Part shown: piece after piece, positions 50,474 through 57,244 of the stretch
Layout: the number at the start of each line of letters is the position of its first letter
Numbering within the stretch: position 1 is the first letter of the stretch
DNA from: Eubacterium sp.
GTDB lineage: Bacteria; Bacillota; Clostridia; Lachnospirales; Lachnospiraceae
Assembly (NCBI GenBank): GCA_017614395.1
Contig: JAGABX010000037.1
Span: forward strand, 1-57,488
Direction of reading: 5' to 3'
DNA: 57,488 nt
The notes under the pieces: model-generated
Seen by the model: only the letters and a program-made list of their open reading frames with translations
What the model was told of the DNA's origin: nothing
Databases searched by the model: none
Position numbers and translations under genes: made by a program

Positions 50474-52630
50474 CTAATCACGCTTTCCAAAATAATGAAA
50501 TGCCATCATTGTGATGTCATCGAACTGCGGGGCTTCGCCGACAAACGTATCAATGCCGGCGCGGACAATGGGCAGTAGCTTCTCGGGGGATGCGCCCGGC
50601 TCCGTGTTAAGCGCCGTCACAAGGCGTTCCTCACCAAACAGTTCATTGTTCGCGTCTGTTGCCTCGGTCACACCGTCGGTGTAAACAAATACGGTATCAC
50701 CAGGCTCCAGCCTGAACTCATGCTCGCGGAACGGCAGTCCCTCCATCGTTGCGACAGCAGCCCCATGCCGGTATTTTACAAGCTCGTATGCGCCTCCCTC
50801 ATGACACAGCGCCGGATGCTCGTGACCGGCATTTGCAGCCAGTCCCTCGCCGGTTTTGAAATTGAGGATTGCCAGCCAAACCGTAACAAACAGTTCCTCC
50901 TCATTGCCTACGCAGAGCTGGTCGTTTACATCGGACAGGATATCCGACGGGCCTCCGCCCATCAGGGCACGTGTTCGAATCGCTGTCATCGCCCTCACCA
51001 TGAACAGCGCCGCCGGCACACCCTTGCCGGACACGTCCGCCATTACCAGAGCGATATGTTCTCCGTCAACCAGGAAAAAGTCATAAAAATCACCTCCGAC
51101 CTCCTTGGCCGGATCCATTGACGCAAACAGTGTAAAATGTCCCAGTCCGTCAAATTCATTGAAATCTGCCGGCAGCATGCTGGCCTGGATGCGCGTCGCG
51201 ACATTCAGTTCCGCCCCGATACGCTCCTTTTCCTTTGTTATCTCGGTGATATCACGGATATACTGTTTCATGCGCTCCGTCAGCGAACCAAACGACTCGG
51301 CCAGAACCTGGATCTCATCACCGGTATCCTCCTCCCAGACGAAGTCCAGATTATCCCCTTTGATCTCACTCACTTTGGTCGTCAGCAAAGACACCTGCCG
51401 AACCAGCATACGTGAAGCGCGACGTGACAAAATCAGCGCAACCACGCTCAACAGGAAGATTATTACGATAAACATAATTATCATAAATCTGATCTGATTA
51501 TAGGAGGCGGTAACAGTCTCCTCAGTAGATTCCTTTAACATACTTACGAGTTCCTCAGTCGGCTGATTAACCTCCTCTGAAGAGATGATAGTAAGGAATG
51601 ACCATCCTACGGTTTCCAGCGGGGCATAGGCAACATAACTGCTCACGCCGTCTAAATCAAGGAGGCCTATTCCGCGTTCTCCGTCAACCGCCTTGGTGAT
51701 CAGATCCGCCAACGCCGTCTGATTGCTTTTCCGGAGATCCTTCAATTGCTCGGGTTCTGATGAAAAAATCTTACCGCCTCCTGATGAGAATATAACCTGT
51801 CCCTCTCCGTCAATCAGGCAGGCATATCCGTTTTCGCCGACCTTGGTCTCGACAACGGCCTTCTCCAGGTCATCCAGATACATCCCGGCGCCTGCAACTC
51901 CCATAAACTCATCGCCCTTGTAAAAAGGCACGCCGCACATGATTCCGACACCCGAGGTATGCGCGTCTCTGGAAAGGGATGTAAAAAACGGTTTGCCTGT
52001 TTCTTTTGCTCCCTTGTACCACGGCCTGTCCGCCGCCTCATAGGGTAGAATGTTTCCGTTTTCGTCAAACTTTTTCGCGGAGATATAATCTGCCTGGATC
52101 ATTATTCCGCTTTCCGAAGCAATGTAATTCGATACCATATTAGGATCACTTTCATTAATTGACAGCAAAGTGTCCTGCCCGTTTGCGAGTAGTCCCAGTT
52201 CCTTTTGAATAGCAGGATCATTCTGATCTGTCTTTTCCGAAAAAAGCAGCTGCGGTGATAGTTTTCCGTCCATTGATGCATCCGGCAAAGGCACCTGTCT
52301 CACACCGTACGAATCCGGATTATCATACATACGTGTCACCGTATCGGCCATGATCTTTACTGAATTCTGAAATTCCTGCAAAGCATGATCGGCAATCTTA
52401 GCCTGACCGTCAGCCGCCAATTGCAGGGATTGTTCAATCTGTTCCTCCATCGTTACAGCGGAAATCACCGAAGCTTTACCTCCGGCAGTCTCACTGGACT
52501 CTATAAAATCGCTTCTCATCCGTAAAAACATAAAAAATGCAACGAGCGACACAACTAACAAAGAAGACAATGTCAACTGCACTGCTACAATCGCAATCTT
52601 TTTTTGTAATGACTTTTTCTTTTTTTTCAT
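50474..52630 (-). CDS. Cache-HAMP-SpoIIE/RsbU-type protein serine phosphatase
   Basis: A membrane receptor phosphatase. Residues 12-34 are TM1, about 45-375 an extracellular double-Cache sensor, about 385-405 TM2, then a HAMP domain to about 460, a short coil, and a PP2C/SpoIIE phosphatase domain to 718. Metal-binding motifs are present: GGDFYDF near 508, ADVSGKG near 530, TDGVTEATD and FDDITMM. Such enzymes dephosphorylate STAS-domain antagonists in partner-switching pathways. GGAGGAGG precedes the start. It is 64 bases downstream of the GNAT gene and probably in one operon with it and the MATE-HATPase gene; no STAS gene is in the window. Confidence 0.92.
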   Translation of the reverse strand: MKKKKKSLQKKIAIVAVQLTLSSLLVVSLVAFFMFLRMRSDFIESSETAGGKASVISAVTMEEQIEQSLQLAADGQAKIADHALQEFQNSVKIMADTVTRMYDNPDSYGVRQVPLPDASMDGKLSPQLLFSEKTDQNDPAIQKELGLLANGQDTLLSINESDPNMVSNYIASESGIMIQADYISAKKFDENGNILPYEAADRPWYKGAKETGKPFFTSLSRDAHTSGVGIMCGVPFYKGDEFMGVAGAGMYLDDLEKAVVETKVGENGYACLIDGEGQVIFSSGGGKIFSSEPEQLKDLRKSNQTALADLITKAVDGERGIGLLDLDGVSSYVAYAPLETVGWSFLTIISSEEVNQPTEELVSMLKESTEETVTASYNQIRFMIIMFIVIIFLLSVVALILSRRASRMLVRQVSLLTTKVSEIKGDNLDFVWEEDTGDEIQVLAESFGSLTERMKQYIRDITEITKEKERIGAELNVATRIQASMLPADFNEFDGLGHFTLFASMDPAKEVGGDFYDFFLVDGEHIALVMADVSGKGVPAALFMVRAMTAIRTRALMGGGPSDILSDVNDQLCVGNEEELFVTVWLAILNFKTGEGLAANAGHEHPALCHEGGAYELVKYRHGAAVATMEGLPFREHEFRLEPGDTVFVYTDGVTEATDANNELFGEERLVTALNTEPGASPEKLLPIVRAGIDTFVGEAPQFDDITMMAFHYFGKRD

Positions 52631-52694
52631 TTACATAACCTCCTCCGACTTGAACCCACCGGCAAAACCCTAATTACAATTCATACGCATTCTT

Positions 52695-53852
52695 CTAATC
52701 CGTTATTCGCCTGCCATAGAACTCTCCTATGTCATCCGCTATCTCACGGAAGGAATCCGTTAACACGTAATCCTCCATGAACAGATTCCATTCATCCATC
52801 CACTGCATAAAAAACTGTTCTCTTTTTCCGCATACCGGCTTTAATCCGGTGAAGAAAAATCCGATCTTTTTCAACCTCTCATATATCTCCAATACGGAAG
52901 GCGTATCATCAAACAGGGCTATCTGTATTGTGTACATACCCTTTCCCCGGTACTCAGAGACCAGTGCGCGCATTTTCTCCGCCAGATCCCGTCCTTCAGT
53001 GATTACCTGAACTCCGACAAACTGCTGCACTTCATCAACAGTGATATCGACTTCACTCTCCTCAAAACATTTATGTTTATCTGACTGAACCCGTCCGGTT
53101 GCCGATACCGTGTTTTTCGTATCTGTAGTTTCGGTAACCGCAACTTCCGTATCCGTAGTTTCCGTAAGCGTATCGGACGCAGTCAGAATACGGCAGCTGA
53201 CACCCAGCCTGTCGTAAATCTTTTTGCCAAACGGCACCAATTCCTCCGGCAGCCATATTGTGCCTGCGGAGCGCTTTGCCATCGGAAGTATCATTATTCC
53301 CTCGGAGTATTTGTCCGGACGCCCCTTGGCATAGCTGATATGCAGGTTTTTTGATAAAAAGCGGCCGAGCCTGAATCCGACAGGAATCATTCCTTCCTTT
53401 TCACAAGTAATCTGCGTTGCATCATGAAACGTAACTGCATGTACAAACACGGCGCAGGGTGAAACACGATCGAGAATCCGGTAAGTATAGTCAACAAGCG
53501 CTGGTGACAGGCCGGTTCCGCGGTAATCACTGTGCAGGATTTCCGAGGCCGGCTCTATGCATTCATCCACTCCATGGGAATACACGAAAATCTCCATCCC
53601 GGCTATCCTGCCCTCAGTCTCAGCTACAAAAAAAGTATATTTATCGGAATGTGCATGTTCCCTGATCCAGCAGGGATCATAGAAATAAGACTTGAAATAC
53701 TTCTCTCCGTATTCCGAACGGATGCACTCTATCATGCCTGTCTCATCGCCATCCCTATAGAGCCTCAGGATAAATCGGTGATCCTCACCTGTATTTCTGT
53801 TTTTTAATTCAACAGTTTCTGGTTCGATCTTCAACTCGTTTACAGGTATCAT
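52695..53852 (-). CDS. GNAT-family N-acetyltransferase with C-terminal extension
   Basis: A 385-residue cytoplasmic protein. About 20-185 is a GNAT acetyltransferase domain with the acetyl-CoA loop DYRGTGLSPALVDY and a beta-bulge strand before it (CIEPASEILH). About 230-250 is a Thr-rich linker with a duplicated TETTDTxxxV unit. About 265-385 is a second alpha/beta domain (VQVITEGRDLAEKMRALVSEY; FFTGLKPVCGKREQFFMQW) that may be a second, degenerate GNAT fold. The substrate is unknown. GGGAG precedes the ATG at 52695-53852's start. Its position between an RsbW-like fusion and a SpoIIE phosphatase suggests a role in that signalling unit. Confidence 0.75.
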   Translation of the reverse strand: MIPVNELKIEPETVELKNRNTGEDHRFILRLYRDGDETGMIECIRSEYGEKYFKSYFYDPCWIREHAHSDKYTFFVAETEGRIAGMEIFVYSHGVDECIEPASEILHSDYRGTGLSPALVDYTYRILDRVSPCAVFVHAVTFHDATQITCEKEGMIPVGFRLGRFLSKNLHISYAKGRPDKYSEGIMILPMAKRSAGTIWLPEELVPFGKKIYDRLGVSCRILTASDTLTETTDTEVAVTETTDTKNTVSATGRVQSDKHKCFEESEVDITVDEVQQFVGVQVITEGRDLAEKMRALVSEYRGKGMYTIQIALFDDTPSVLEIYERLKKIGFFFTGLKPVCGKREQFFMQWMDEWNLFMEDYVLTDSFREIADDIGEFYGRRITD

Positions 53853-53931
53853 TTTTACTCCCGTTTTTCTCAATCAGAATTCCCACATGTGTTACGACTA
53901 TGCGGGTGGCAACCCATACGCTCCTTATCAC

Positions 53932-54053
53932 ATAAACAGTCATGTTAAGCGGAGCGGATACCGTCCGAAGTTGCGAAGCGAAGCGAAGCAGCGAGGAATA
54001 CGGTATCGGCAACCGGACGGGTTCAGTCAGATAAACAATCATGTTAAGAGGAG
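53932..54053. repeat. Intergenic element R5 with flanking direct repeats
   Basis: Two 23-base direct copies (53932-53954 and 54031-54053, two mismatches; ATAAACARTCATGTTAAG core) bracket a GC-rich palindromic stretch. Inside, GATACCGT pairs with ACGGTATC and CCGTCCG with CGGACGG, the arms interleaved. The right copy contains the stop codon of the MATE-HATPase gene. The rest of the 191-base gap shows no gene. Confidence 0.65.
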
Positions 54054-55828
54054 AATATGGCTATCAGATTATTAACACCCAATGTCCTCTTGAAATAAAT
54101 CACATCTGCTTTTTCACTTATCAGTTTGATACCGAGTGTATCATCAGCCAACAGTTCCTCAGCAGACATAGTCTTCTGTCTGTCCTCATACCACTTGAGC
54201 GGGTCGAACAATTTTCCGCCGCAACGTATTCGCAAAACTATACCATCCTCATCGATCATTATACGCACATCCGCAAACCGGTTTTTGTCGTCACCTAAAC
54301 AGTGTTCCCCCATAACAACGAGAAGTTCCTCCAACGCCAGCGGGATACTCATGGCATAACGTGGATTCATATCATTTTCCTCGCAGAATTGTTCCATCAT
54401 CCGCGATGCCGAAACCGCGCCATCCTTATCTCCCGGCACGGAAAATGACAAAAGCCGCTCGTCCACCTTCAACGAATCATCCAGGAGCAACAGGCCTTTG
54501 TATCGAGGATTCTTTTTCGATTGATGACGGCACATGAGAAACATGATACCTATCCCGGCAAGCTCCGCCGCCGGAAAAGCAATCATATACCAATGTCCCA
54601 GGCCTGTCGCAAAAATAGCAAGGGCAAACAGCACAACCAGCACAAACGCTCTCAGAACAGTCAGGGAAATCGCAAAACGATTCCGTCCGACCGCTGTATA
54701 GTAATAGATATAAACATTCAGCAATGCCGCCGGAATCAGGCTTAACGCAGCCATTCGCACGCCGAATGCCGCCTCTGAAACCAATACGCTGTCATGTATT
54801 CCGAACAGCTCCGCAATCGGAGCAGCGGCGATCGCCACTCCTATAAATTCCAACCCGTGAATTATAAACGCATATCGGCAGGTCCGGTTCATCAGGAGTT
54901 TTATGCTCACGGGATCTCTCTCTCCGTAAAACACGCCGACTAACGGAGAAACAGTCTGACCGCACCCGAATACAGAGGCCGAGGCAAATGAAATTATTGA
55001 GCATGCCACGGCAAATGTACTTGCCCCGTCCGATCCGAGATTCCTCAAAACCAGCGCATTCAGGACAAGTGTCCTGAGCATATTGCACAGGTTATTGATA
55101 CCCGCTGCCGCACCCGTTACGAACACGGGAATCGTCAATAATAACAAGCGTAAAATTCCGGGAAACACCGGCTTGATCTGTCTCTTTTTCCCGAAAAAAA
55201 GTATGAAAACACCGACTAAATCCGCCACACCGGTACTGATCACGGTAGCCCAGGCAACTCCCGGCAACCCGAAACCCGCCCCCAAAAAAACAACGAGCAG
55301 AATAACATCCAGCACTCCCATGAAGATAAATATTACCATTGATATATTCGCCCGACCGTCCAAACGCAGGAAATTAAACGGGAAATACATCATAGTTGTC
55401 AAAAAGCCGAAAATCAGCATTATCCGCGCATAGCTTTTCATGAACTCATACAGGCTGTCGTCACAACCTAATAATGACATGAGCGGATGCATAAACATAA
55501 GCAGGAGTACGGAAATGATTGCCGGCATCAGTATTGAAAAAACAAAAGAATATGTCTCGTACTCGCCAACCTCTCCGTCATCTCCGCGTCCCATAGCAAC
55601 AGACGCACGCGCGCATGCTCCGATATTGATCAGGCAGCCGAACATGGCAAACAAAAACGTGAACGAACTCAGCAGATTCATTGCCGTGAGAGCCTGCTTA
55701 CCAAGGACGCGCCCGGCTAACAGCGTATTTATAAACTGTACTGCAGTTGTCCCGAGAATTGCAAGTATAGTCGGAACGAGATATTTCTGCAGTGTCTTTT
55801 TTATAAAATAATCATTTGAATCATTCAT
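54044..55828 (-). CDS. MATE transporter fused to RsbW-like HATPase domain
   Basis: A 594-residue fusion. About 1-440 is a MATE-type transporter with 12 helices (LVPTILAILGTTAVQFINTLLAGRV; SVFGCGQTVSPLVGVFYGERD). About 441-594 is a cytoplasmic domain of the RsbW/HATPase_c_2 type, recognised from EELLVVMGEH, RCGGKLFDPLKW and LGIKLISEKADVIYFKRTLGVNNL. The conserved Asn of the N box is V505 and the adenine-binding Asp of the G1 box is C536, so ATP binding is doubtful. It is followed by GNAT and SpoIIE phosphatase genes, the usual partners of RsbW-type proteins. AGGA lies about 9 bases before the ATG. Confidence 0.85.
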   Translation of the reverse strand: MNDSNDYFIKKTLQKYLVPTILAILGTTAVQFINTLLAGRVLGKQALTAMNLLSSFTFLFAMFGCLINIGACARASVAMGRGDDGEVGEYETYSFVFSILMPAIISVLLLMFMHPLMSLLGCDDSLYEFMKSYARIMLIFGFLTTMMYFPFNFLRLDGRANISMVIFIFMGVLDVILLVVFLGAGFGLPGVAWATVISTGVADLVGVFILFFGKKRQIKPVFPGILRLLLLTIPVFVTGAAAGINNLCNMLRTLVLNALVLRNLGSDGASTFAVACSIISFASASVFGCGQTVSPLVGVFYGERDPVSIKLLMNRTCRYAFIIHGLEFIGVAIAAAPIAELFGIHDSVLVSEAAFGVRMAALSLIPAALLNVYIYYYTAVGRNRFAISLTVLRAFVLVVLFALAIFATGLGHWYMIAFPAAELAGIGIMFLMCRHQSKKNPRYKGLLLLDDSLKVDERLLSFSVPGDKDGAVSASRMMEQFCEENDMNPRYAMSIPLALEELLVVMGEHCLGDDKNRFADVRIMIDEDGIVLRIRCGGKLFDPLKWYEDRQKTMSAEELLADDTLGIKLISEKADVIYFKRTLGVNNLIAIFSS

Positions 55829-55903: not shown

Positions 55904-57166
55904 CTATTGAACCTTTTTATCAATAAAATTCGATTTAAATTTTGAGTAAACAATCTTCTGGCTGGTGTACAATCCGTAATACCCGGAGAACATATATGCG
56001 ATCGCGCATGCCAGCAGGAAATACGCAGCTCCGGAAAACCCGAACAGTTCCAGACAGATAAGCAACGATGTCACAGGACAGTTTGTCACACCGCAGAATA
56101 CGGTTCCCATCCCCACTGCCGCGCACAGAGCCGGTTCCCATCCGATGATATTGCCGAACAGACATCCGAACGACGCGCCTATGAAAAAGGTTGGCACGAT
56201 CTCGCCACCTCGATATCCGGCCACAATTGACAGAACCGTAAATACGATCTTGATCAGAAATCCCATAGGTTCAACAACGCCGTCTATACAGTTGTTGATA
56301 TAATGAACGCCCGCGCCGTTATACGACTGATTACCCACTAAAAGAGTCAACCCCAACACGGCAGTTCCGAGTATCAGCGCGCGTATATATCTGTTGCTCA
56401 GATACTTTTTCGCTAATACCTCGCCATAACGCAGCGCCAGACAAAACACGATTGACACCAATCCGCACAGTGCCGCCAATCCGGCAATTTTCAGGGCGGA
56501 TATTAAATCAAAATCCGGTATAATTCCAATGTCAAAAAACGGAGCCTCAGCACCGATATATTTTGCGACACCTCTCGCGACAAACGAGGCGATAACGCAC
56601 GGCATCAATGCCCCATAGTGCATTATTCCGACACTCACTACCTCCAACGGAAAAAAAGCGGCAGCCATCGGCGTCCCAAACAGCGCGGAAAACATTGCCG
56701 TCATGCCGATCATCGTCAGGACCTTTTTCTCGTTGACGGATATTTTTAAAAACCTGCCGCAAAAATTCCCTACGGCACCGCCTATCTGCAGGGCGGCCCC
56801 CTCACGGCCGACTGACGCTCCGACTAAATGCGACATCACGGTCGATACAAATATCAGTGCGGACATCCTGAGCGGAACATTCTCATCCGACTGGATTGAC
56901 AATAAAACCAGATTGGTTCCTCTGTCATTATCACCATGCAGGATGTGATAAAACCACAGAATAACAACCGCTGTTACAGGCAAAAAGAATATAATCCAAT
57001 TATTCTCAAAACGCAAATATGTCACATAGTTTATAGCAAGATAAAAAACGCCTCCGACGGCTCCCAAAACCACTCCTAAAATAAGGGAAAAAAACATAAT
57101 TCTGAACATCGCGATGTAGCGTTTTTCAGTATGTTTTACTTTATGCCTGACAAATTCCGAATCCAT
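55904..57166 (-). CDS. CLC-family chloride/fluoride transporter
   Basis: A 420-residue CLC membrane protein with about 16-18 helices. The gating-glutamate motif reads GASVGREGAALQ where chloride members have GREGP, and the last filter region reads GGEIVPTFFIGAS. The non-proline GREG motif resembles the fluoride-exporting CLC-F branch, but this is not decisive. No regulatory CBS domain is present. The ATG at 57166 is used with GGAG upstream; an in-frame TTG three codons earlier is too close to that site. The 78-base leader holds no recognisable fluoride riboswitch. Confidence 0.85.
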   Translation of the reverse strand: MDSEFVRHKVKHTEKRYIAMFRIMFFSLILGVVLGAVGGVFYLAINYVTYLRFENNWIIFFLPVTAVVILWFYHILHGDNDRGTNLVLLSIQSDENVPLRMSALIFVSTVMSHLVGASVGREGAALQIGGAVGNFCGRFLKISVNEKKVLTMIGMTAMFSALFGTPMAAAFFPLEVVSVGIMHYGALMPCVIASFVARGVAKYIGAEAPFFDIGIIPDFDLISALKIAGLAALCGLVSIVFCLALRYGEVLAKKYLSNRYIRALILGTAVLGLTLLVGNQSYNGAGVHYINNCIDGVVEPMGFLIKIVFTVLSIVAGYRGGEIVPTFFIGASFGCLFGNIIGWEPALCAAVGMGTVFCGVTNCPVTSLLICLELFGFSGAAYFLLACAIAYMFSGYYGLYTSQKIVYSKFKSNFIDKKVQ

Positions 57167-57244
57167 ACCAAACAAACTCCTGTTTCGATTGTTTCAAAAA
57201 CCGGTTACACTCCCCCGATCGATGTTTTCAATACAGGACTATTC

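What the first reader, a model, noticed from the sequence alone, without database searches (positions are those of the whole stretch)
50474..55828. MATE transporter fused to an RsbW-like domain, encoded with a GNAT protein and a Cache-SpoIIE phosphatase
The sequence shows three same-strand genes: a MATE-HATPase_c_2 fusion, a two-domain GNAT protein, and a membrane receptor PP2C phosphatase. RsbW-type kinases and SpoIIE/RsbU phosphatases act on STAS proteins in partner switching. Here the kinase-like part is attached to a transporter, so an extracellular signal sensed by the Cache domain could control transport through phosphorylation, or the transporter could report flux to the switch. I infer a candidate undescribed signalling-transport module; the STAS partner is not in the window.
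Basis: partly seen in the sequence, partly recalled or inferred. Interest (0 to 1): 0.8.

Follow-up and report, generated by a model that had tools for sequence, protein, structure and literature searches.

The report
Efflux pump wired to partner switch
Gut and rumen bacteria of several families carry an efflux-type membrane pump fused to a disarmed copy of a signalling kinase, encoded beside an outside-sensing phosphatase and often the real kinase and its messenger protein, which suggests that a switch known for controlling gene expression here directly controls a transporter.

Summary
The module is conserved. In a scan led by the GNAT alone, the next gene down shows SpoIIE in 52 of 65 loci (5 more are cut after the Cache part), a MATE-HATPase fusion lies near in 30, STAS in 33, a kinase in 45. 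In a neighbour-blind search, 7 of 7 inspected MATE fusions lay within 5 kb of SpoIIE. Best model: a pseudokinase receiver that STAS binds, so a partner switch gates a transporter, as SiaC acts on SiaD. The window lacks STAS and RsbW, but its genome holds a matching pair on contig C13 and no SigB/F/G-type sigma factor was found. STAS binding and transport control are inferred.

The parts
54494..55828 (-). MATE transporter part (residues 1-445) of the fusion protein
   Evidence: Pfam MatE E=4.4e-26, two stretches; nearest NCBIfam is generic matE, below its cut-off
54044..54493 (-). C-terminal RsbW/SpoIIAB-fold domain (residues 446-594) and stop; degenerate: N-box EELLVV (Val505 where kinases have Asn), G1 box RCGG (Cys536 where kinases have Asp), Glu501 kept
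52695..53873 (-). Two-part GNAT-like protein (N-terminal GNAT fold, second part unassigned)
50474..52630 (-). Membrane dCache-SpoIIE/PP2C phosphatase (possible HAMP between)
   Evidence: SpoIIE 154.3 bits, dCache_1 72.2 bits, HAMP E=0.058; nearest NCBIfam equivalog SiaA, below cut-off; catalytic motifs
53057..53119 (.). Copy of a dispersed short repeat, inside the GNAT gene near its low-confidence linker
   Evidence: 63-nt inverted repeat, 87%; 45 matches of the 82-nt query in the genome; pLDDT under 50 at residues 253-265
53975..54056 (.). Second copy of the same repeat, at the MATE-GNAT gap

Best explanation
A partner-switching module, independent of a sigma factor, whose output is a membrane transporter. 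The Cache domain senses something outside and controls the SpoIIE phosphatase; a separate (or phosphatase-fused) RsbW kinase phosphorylates a small STAS protein and the phosphatase reverses this. The RsbW-like domain on the MATE protein is a pseudokinase: it keeps the fold and is under selection but lacks the Asn and Asp that Mg-ATP binding needs in this fold (recalled knowledge), so it acts as a docking receiver for (probably unphosphorylated) STAS, which gates the pump. The adjacent GNAT is probably a second output, or the enzyme that modifies the exported compound. In the window's genome the STAS-RsbW pair acting in trans would be the one on contig C13. Shown: gene order and its conservation, folds, residue losses, selection, the C13 pair. 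Inferred: STAS docking, direction of control, role of GNAT. Unknown: ligand and substrate.
For: GNAT-led scan, 65 loci: SpoIIE domain next downstream in 52, Cache part only in 5 at or near contig ends; MATE fusion within 5 kb in 30, STAS-only gene in 33, kinase in 45, MATE+SpoIIE/Cache+STAS+kinase in 15. Neighbour-blind search: 7 of 7 inspected fusions near SpoIIE. All five genes with matches over Pfam cut-offs in L163, Sporofaciens musculi. N and D lost in the GNAT-nearest fusion in 31 of 31 loci; kinases in MATE-fusion loci keep both, 18 of 18 distinct. dN/dS of the dead domain 0.07-0.15 in 5 of 6 unsaturated pairs. STAS phosphosite-type motif in 37 of 37 STAS-only ORFs of the scan. C13 STAS and RsbW 64-66% and 57% identical to the module copies of L109 and L111. 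None of 7 Sigma70_r2 hits reaches the SigB/F/G cut-off.
Against: No binding, phosphorylation or transport data. Loss and linkage trace to one or two clades; independent pairs are too few to test. Some phosphatase- or STAS-linked fusions keep N and D (3 of 10 true GNAT-less linked fusions: L059, L068, L069; and L209, L210 keep N); three second paralogues within 6 kb of a GNAT keep both. 35 of 65 GNAT loci have no MATE fusion within 5 kb; only 11 of these are cut by a locus end within 5 kb. The window locus has neither RsbW nor STAS beside it.
Confidence: 0.58

Rival explanations
1. The transporter is the input, not the output: its transport cycle changes how tightly the pseudokinase domain holds STAS, so flux is reported to the switch and freed STAS acts elsewhere, for instance on the GNAT.
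For: The same anatomy and linkage fit it; 35 of 65 GNAT loci have no MATE fusion within 5 kb, so MATE is not an obligatory output.
Against: The Cache phosphatase already supplies an input; nothing here distinguishes the two directions directly.
Confidence: 0.2
2. One reading: the fused domain is a working RsbW kinase that phosphorylates STAS at the membrane.
For: SpoIIAB/RsbW fold; the N-box Glu taken as general base is kept in 67 of 67 fusions; fusions of other lineages often keep N and D (27 and 33 of 67).
Against: Window-type domains lack both residues (31 of 31 loci), and intact kinases sit in the same loci.
Confidence: 0.06
3. An ordinary anti-sigma switch: RsbW controls a sigma factor, the operon is its regulon or neighbour, and the domain on MATE is a decoy without effect on transport.
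For: RsbW and STAS families are classically anti-sigma and anti-anti-sigma (recalled); NCBIfam gives sub-cut-off RsbW/SpoIIAB matches for the kinases and an over-cut-off 'anti-sigma factor antagonist' superfamily match for STAS.
Against: None of the 7 Sigma70_r2 hits reaches the SigB/F/G cut-off; one is RpoD, one FliA/WhiG, the rest pass only the generic sigma-70 model; the genome is 94.7% complete, so one could be missing. The direct fusion is conserved and under selection.
Confidence: 0.12

Closest known systems
SiaABCD of Pseudomonas aeruginosa (PMC7647112: abstract and section list; PMC8457831: passages)
   Different: Output there is a diguanylate cyclase bound through its stalk; here the putative output is a MATE transporter carrying a pseudokinase copy of the switch kinase, with a GNAT. 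SiaC is DUF1987, not PF01740 STAS.
RsbU/RsbV/RsbW and SpoIIE/SpoIIAA/SpoIIAB anti-sigma switches (recalled, plus folds)
   Same: PP2C phosphatase, STAS with conserved Ser motif, GHKL kinase; the fused domain has the SpoIIAB fold.
   Different: No SigB/F/G-type sigma factor found; an extra, catalytically degenerate kinase-fold domain is fused to a transporter.
SulP/SLC26 transporters with a STAS domain (PMC8256260: passages)
   Same: A transporter fused to one half of the STAS-RsbW partnership.
   Different: Mirror image: there the STAS half is fused, here the RsbW half; different transporter family.
BtrU/V/W of Bordetella (PMC8256260: passages)
   Same: Partner switch tied to a transport process (type III secretion), not only to a sigma factor.
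   Different: No fusion of the switch to the transport machine is described in the passages seen.

Membership tests
Partner-switching system (phosphatase/STAS/kinase) | PP2C/SpoIIE phosphatase with catalytic motifs | tested here: met
   154 bits; each of four motifs present in 51-54 of 54 complete Cache-SpoIIE proteins
Partner-switching system (phosphatase/STAS/kinase) | RsbW-type kinase with N-box Asn and G1 Asp | tested here: met
   Met in relatives: 18 of 18 distinct kinases in loci with a MATE fusion. Not in the window locus; an intact one lies on contig C13
Partner-switching system (phosphatase/STAS/kinase) | STAS protein with phosphorylatable Ser/Thr | tested here: met
   Within 5 kb in 33 of 65 GNAT loci; motif in 37 of 37 STAS-only ORFs. 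Not adjacent in the window; a pair partner on C13
Partner-switching system (phosphatase/STAS/kinase) | Phosphorylation-dependent exchange of binding partners | not testable with these tools
   needs biochemistry
RsbW/SpoIIAB serine kinase (the fused domain) | SpoIIAB-like GHKL fold | tested here: met
RsbW/SpoIIAB serine kinase (the fused domain) | N-box Asn and G1-box Asp for Mg-ATP | tested here: not met
   Val505 and Cys536 in the window; both lost in the GNAT-nearest fusion of 31 of 31 loci
MATE efflux transporters | Pfam MatE, two repeats | tested here: met
   91.9 bits, two stretches; cation-site residues not tested
SiaABCD | DUF1987 (SiaC-type) target and diguanylate cyclase output | tested here: inconclusive
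   L163 STAS scores as PF01740; not every neighbour was run against Pfam; phosphatase below the SiaA cut-off
SigB/SigF-type anti-sigma system | Cognate SigB/F/G-family sigma factor in the genome | tested here: not met
   7 Sigma70_r2 hits, none over the SigBFG cut-off; genome 94.7% complete

The most novel reading that the evidence does not exclude
A general bacterial scheme in which the RsbW fold, stripped of kinase activity, serves as a plug-in receiver that puts transporters (MATE, perhaps SDF) and acyltransferases (GNAT) under direct post-translational control of a sensor-phosphatase/STAS partner switch without any sigma factor; related fusions beside NRPS, GH3 and STAS-phosphotransferase genes would extend it to export of natural products.
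Probability: 0.42. Interest if true: 0.87.

Novelty: new variant of a known kind. Interest (0 to 1): 0.72.

Why it matters
Partner switches are known for freeing sigma factors, activating a cyclase or controlling a secretion system. A pseudokinase copy of the switch kinase fused to a secondary transporter would be a direct link from an outside signal to transport, without a transcription step, in gut and rumen bacteria. It makes testable predictions: the fused domain binds STAS but not ATP, and transport depends on STAS phosphorylation. It may also explain why this genome holds many SpoIIE, STAS and HATPase_c_2 matches (13, 12 and 13) without a recognised SigB/F/G-type target.

Tried and rejected
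Sequence-only PDB search with the fused-domain profile gave only chance antibody hits; the fold search was needed. Chance neighbourhood: rejected. Decaying remnant: rejected by dN/dS, with the caveat that pair L109/L110 has dS only 0.035 and ratio 0.43, and window/L111 was saturated. A phylogenetically independent test of 'loss goes with linkage' failed for lack of power (4 to 6 independent pairs, sign test p=1); the Fisher test ignores relatedness and is not relied on. GNAT as universal partner: rejected; 1 of 7 neighbour-blind fusions has it, and in the first survey only the window had one (at looser thresholds a 151-aa GNAT also appeared in L063).

The tree groups used the uncorrected labels. 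The count of 58 with Cache/SpoIIE contains L173, whose next gene is a chemotaxis receptor. An SDF transporter in the L105/L161 operon, which I first took for a second degenerate HATPase fusion, shows no HATPase_c_2 in Pfam (nor does L066); its N-terminal part aligns weakly with such domains (E 0.003 over residues 5-44; three-row profile against A6 77.8% probability), so I no longer lean on it and lowered the novel case from 0.45 to 0.42.

Rows dropped: one fusion (L064, contig end) lost by the simple ORF picker; one GNAT locus (L135) without a GNAT ORF; two short rows; L133, L141, L146, L148 and L161 are the same contigs as L101, L100, L102, L103 and L105, and four of these supplied query rows of A5. 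Of 13 hit places outside the own genome, 9 were fetched and 7 held MATE fusions. Literature: ten searches of open PMC text (two returned no paper) listed none on a MATE-HATPase fusion, judged by title and start of abstract; subscription papers were not searched.
Full report
WHAT IS THERE. Pfam gives MatE (92 bits), a sub-threshold HATPase_c_2 (16.7 against 27.4 bits), sub-threshold GNAT families, and dCache_1 (72 bits) plus SpoIIE (154 bits), both over cut-off. The next gene upstream, a CLC-type gene at 55904-57175 on the same strand, does not seem to be part of it: in the relatives L109 and L111 the gene before the fusion is a tryptophan synthase alpha chain.

IT IS NOT ALONE IN THE GENOME. 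The same genome has two more MATE-HATPase fusions (contigs C16 and C128) and one protein with a sub-threshold N-terminal HATPase_c_2 (24.4 bits) on an SDF symporter (C41), with 13 SpoIIE and 12 STAS matches. In 150 genomes of the family, 32 had a match to the fused-domain profile at E<=1e-6; 33 MATE fusions plus the window were resolved with their neighbourhoods.

THE MODULE IS CONSERVED. The GNAT alone was found in 9 of 397 family genomes, own included. A scan of the GTDB genome collection with the GNAT alignment gave 66 loci, 65 with a GNAT ORF. On the same strand, the next 1.2 kb downstream begins a gene with a SpoIIE domain in 52 of 65, and with the Cache part only in 6: five at or near contig ends and one, L173, that is a chemotaxis receptor. 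A MATE-HATPase fusion lies within 5 kb in 30 (25 directly upstream), a STAS-only gene in 33, a kinase (separate or phosphatase-fused) in 45, all four kinds in 15. Several genes overlap by a few bases, as in operons. Two layouts recur: (STAS) - MATE-HATPase - GNAT - Cache-SpoIIE - RsbW (- STAS), and STAS - GNAT - Cache-SpoIIE-RsbW with or without a MATE fusion downstream. L163 is a complete example with all five genes matched over Pfam cut-offs. Because that scan was led by the GNAT, I made a neighbour-blind test: the fused-domain profile A6 matched 11 of 398 genomes of the phylum, own included. Of 13 hit places outside the own genome I fetched 9; 7 held MATE fusions, and all 7 have a SpoIIE gene within 5 kb on the same strand, 2 with STAS, 3 with a separate RsbW (up to 5.2 kb away), 1 with GNAT; 5 of the 7 have lost the N-box Asn. 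Thus the phosphatase link is general for window-like fusions and the GNAT is an addition in part of them.

THE DOMAIN ON THE TRANSPORTER IS A PSEUDOKINASE. On an alignment of 133 distinct HATPase domains separate RsbW-type domains keep the N-box Asn in 23 of 24 and the G1 Asp in 23 of 24, SpoIIE-fused ones in 36 of 36 and 35 of 36 (one gap). MATE-fused domains keep Asn in 27 of 67 and Asp in 33 of 67. Of 34 fusions within 6 kb of a GNAT, 31 lost both; these are the fusions nearest the GNAT in their 31 loci, and the three that keep both are second fusions in loci L115, L163 and L165. Of fusions with SpoIIE, STAS-only or kinase neighbours but no GNAT, 3 of 10 keep both; of the rest, 21 of 23 (corrected; as printed 5 of 12 and 19 of 21). 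In the window Val505 and Cys536 stand at these places; the N-box Glu remains in all 67. Kinases in loci that hold a MATE fusion keep both residues in 18 of 18 distinct cases. The dead domain is not decaying: dN/dS 0.07-0.15 in 5 of 6 unsaturated pairs, near that of the membrane part, with 12 invariant columns in 31 rows. The tree of the membrane part puts linked-and-lost fusions in two supported clades, perhaps one; the association is one or two events, and the independent-pairs test has no power.

WHERE THE MISSING PARTS ARE. The window locus has no RsbW or STAS beside it. Contig C13 of the same genome carries a STAS (98 aa) - RsbW (147 aa) pair that is the best match, among the own-genome loci compared, of the module STAS and RsbW of the nearest relatives L109 and L111 (64-66% and 57% identity); for some more distant modules another own pair (C69) scores best for RsbW. 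None of the 7 Sigma70_r2 proteins of the genome reaches the SigB/F/G cut-off; one is RpoD and one FliA/WhiG by cut-off, the others pass only the generic sigma-70 model. A classical target for RsbW was therefore not found.

HOW IT MOST LIKELY WORKS. Cache senses a ligand, the phosphatase dephosphorylates STAS, RsbW rephosphorylates it, and the state of STAS decides whether it docks on the pseudokinase domain of the MATE pump. The nearest precedent is SiaABCD, where phosphatase SiaA and kinase SiaB set the state of SiaC (PMC7647112 abstract) and unphosphorylated SiaC activates the cyclase SiaD (PMC8457831 passages); SiaA is also the nearest, sub-threshold NCBIfam equivalog of the window phosphatase. 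Steps not shown: STAS docking, its sign, the ligand, the substrate, and what the GNAT does; its presumed acetyl-CoA loop (recalled motif) keeps Arg118 in 45 of 45 and Gly121 in 36 of 45. The reverse direction, a transporter that reports flux to the switch, is not excluded.

WHAT IS KNOWN. Ten searches of the open PMC library listed no paper on such fusions, judged by title and start of abstract. STAS-bearing SulP transporters and the Btr switch of Bordetella are the nearest ideas that join these domains with transport (PMC8256260 passages). I rate it a new variant of partner switching with a new kind of output, at moderate confidence.

Noticed in passing
window 53057-53119 and 53975-54056: A dispersed short repeat (45 matches of the 82-nt query in the genome); one copy lies inside the GNAT gene at its linker and one at the MATE-GNAT gap, which may explain the longer GNAT and wider gap than in relatives.
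   Followed up: partly
L067, L068, L069, L074, L075, L076: Other MATE-HATPase fusions, nearly all with intact N and D, stand beside NRPS genes, several ending in a reductase domain, some with STAS or GH3 genes near; candidate exporters of NRPS products.
   Followed up: partly
L010:7870-11721 (own genome, C128): STAS fused to an APH-type phosphotransferase, a cytidylyltransferase-like gene, a MATE-HATPase fusion and a HAD gene in a row; an STAS-APH gene also lies next to the fusion in L080.
   Followed up: partly
L006 (own genome, C41), L066, L105: SDF symporters with an N-terminal region that looks like a degenerate HATPase; only L006 has a (sub-threshold) Pfam match; L066 stands next to a MATE-HATPase fusion and L105 in a complete module.
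   Followed up: partly
L062:8012-10666: An 884-aa MATE-HATPase protein with an additional HD-CE domain.
   Followed up: no
L168, L172, L174 (and N-terminal extensions of L104, L106): GNAT relatives with an N-terminal HATPase-like domain, in L174 beside a Cache-SpoIIE-RsbW gene; GNAT may be another output of such switches.
   Followed up: no
L199:145-1881: A 578-aa protein with an ECF-type sigma domain near its start in the window's genome.
   Followed up: no
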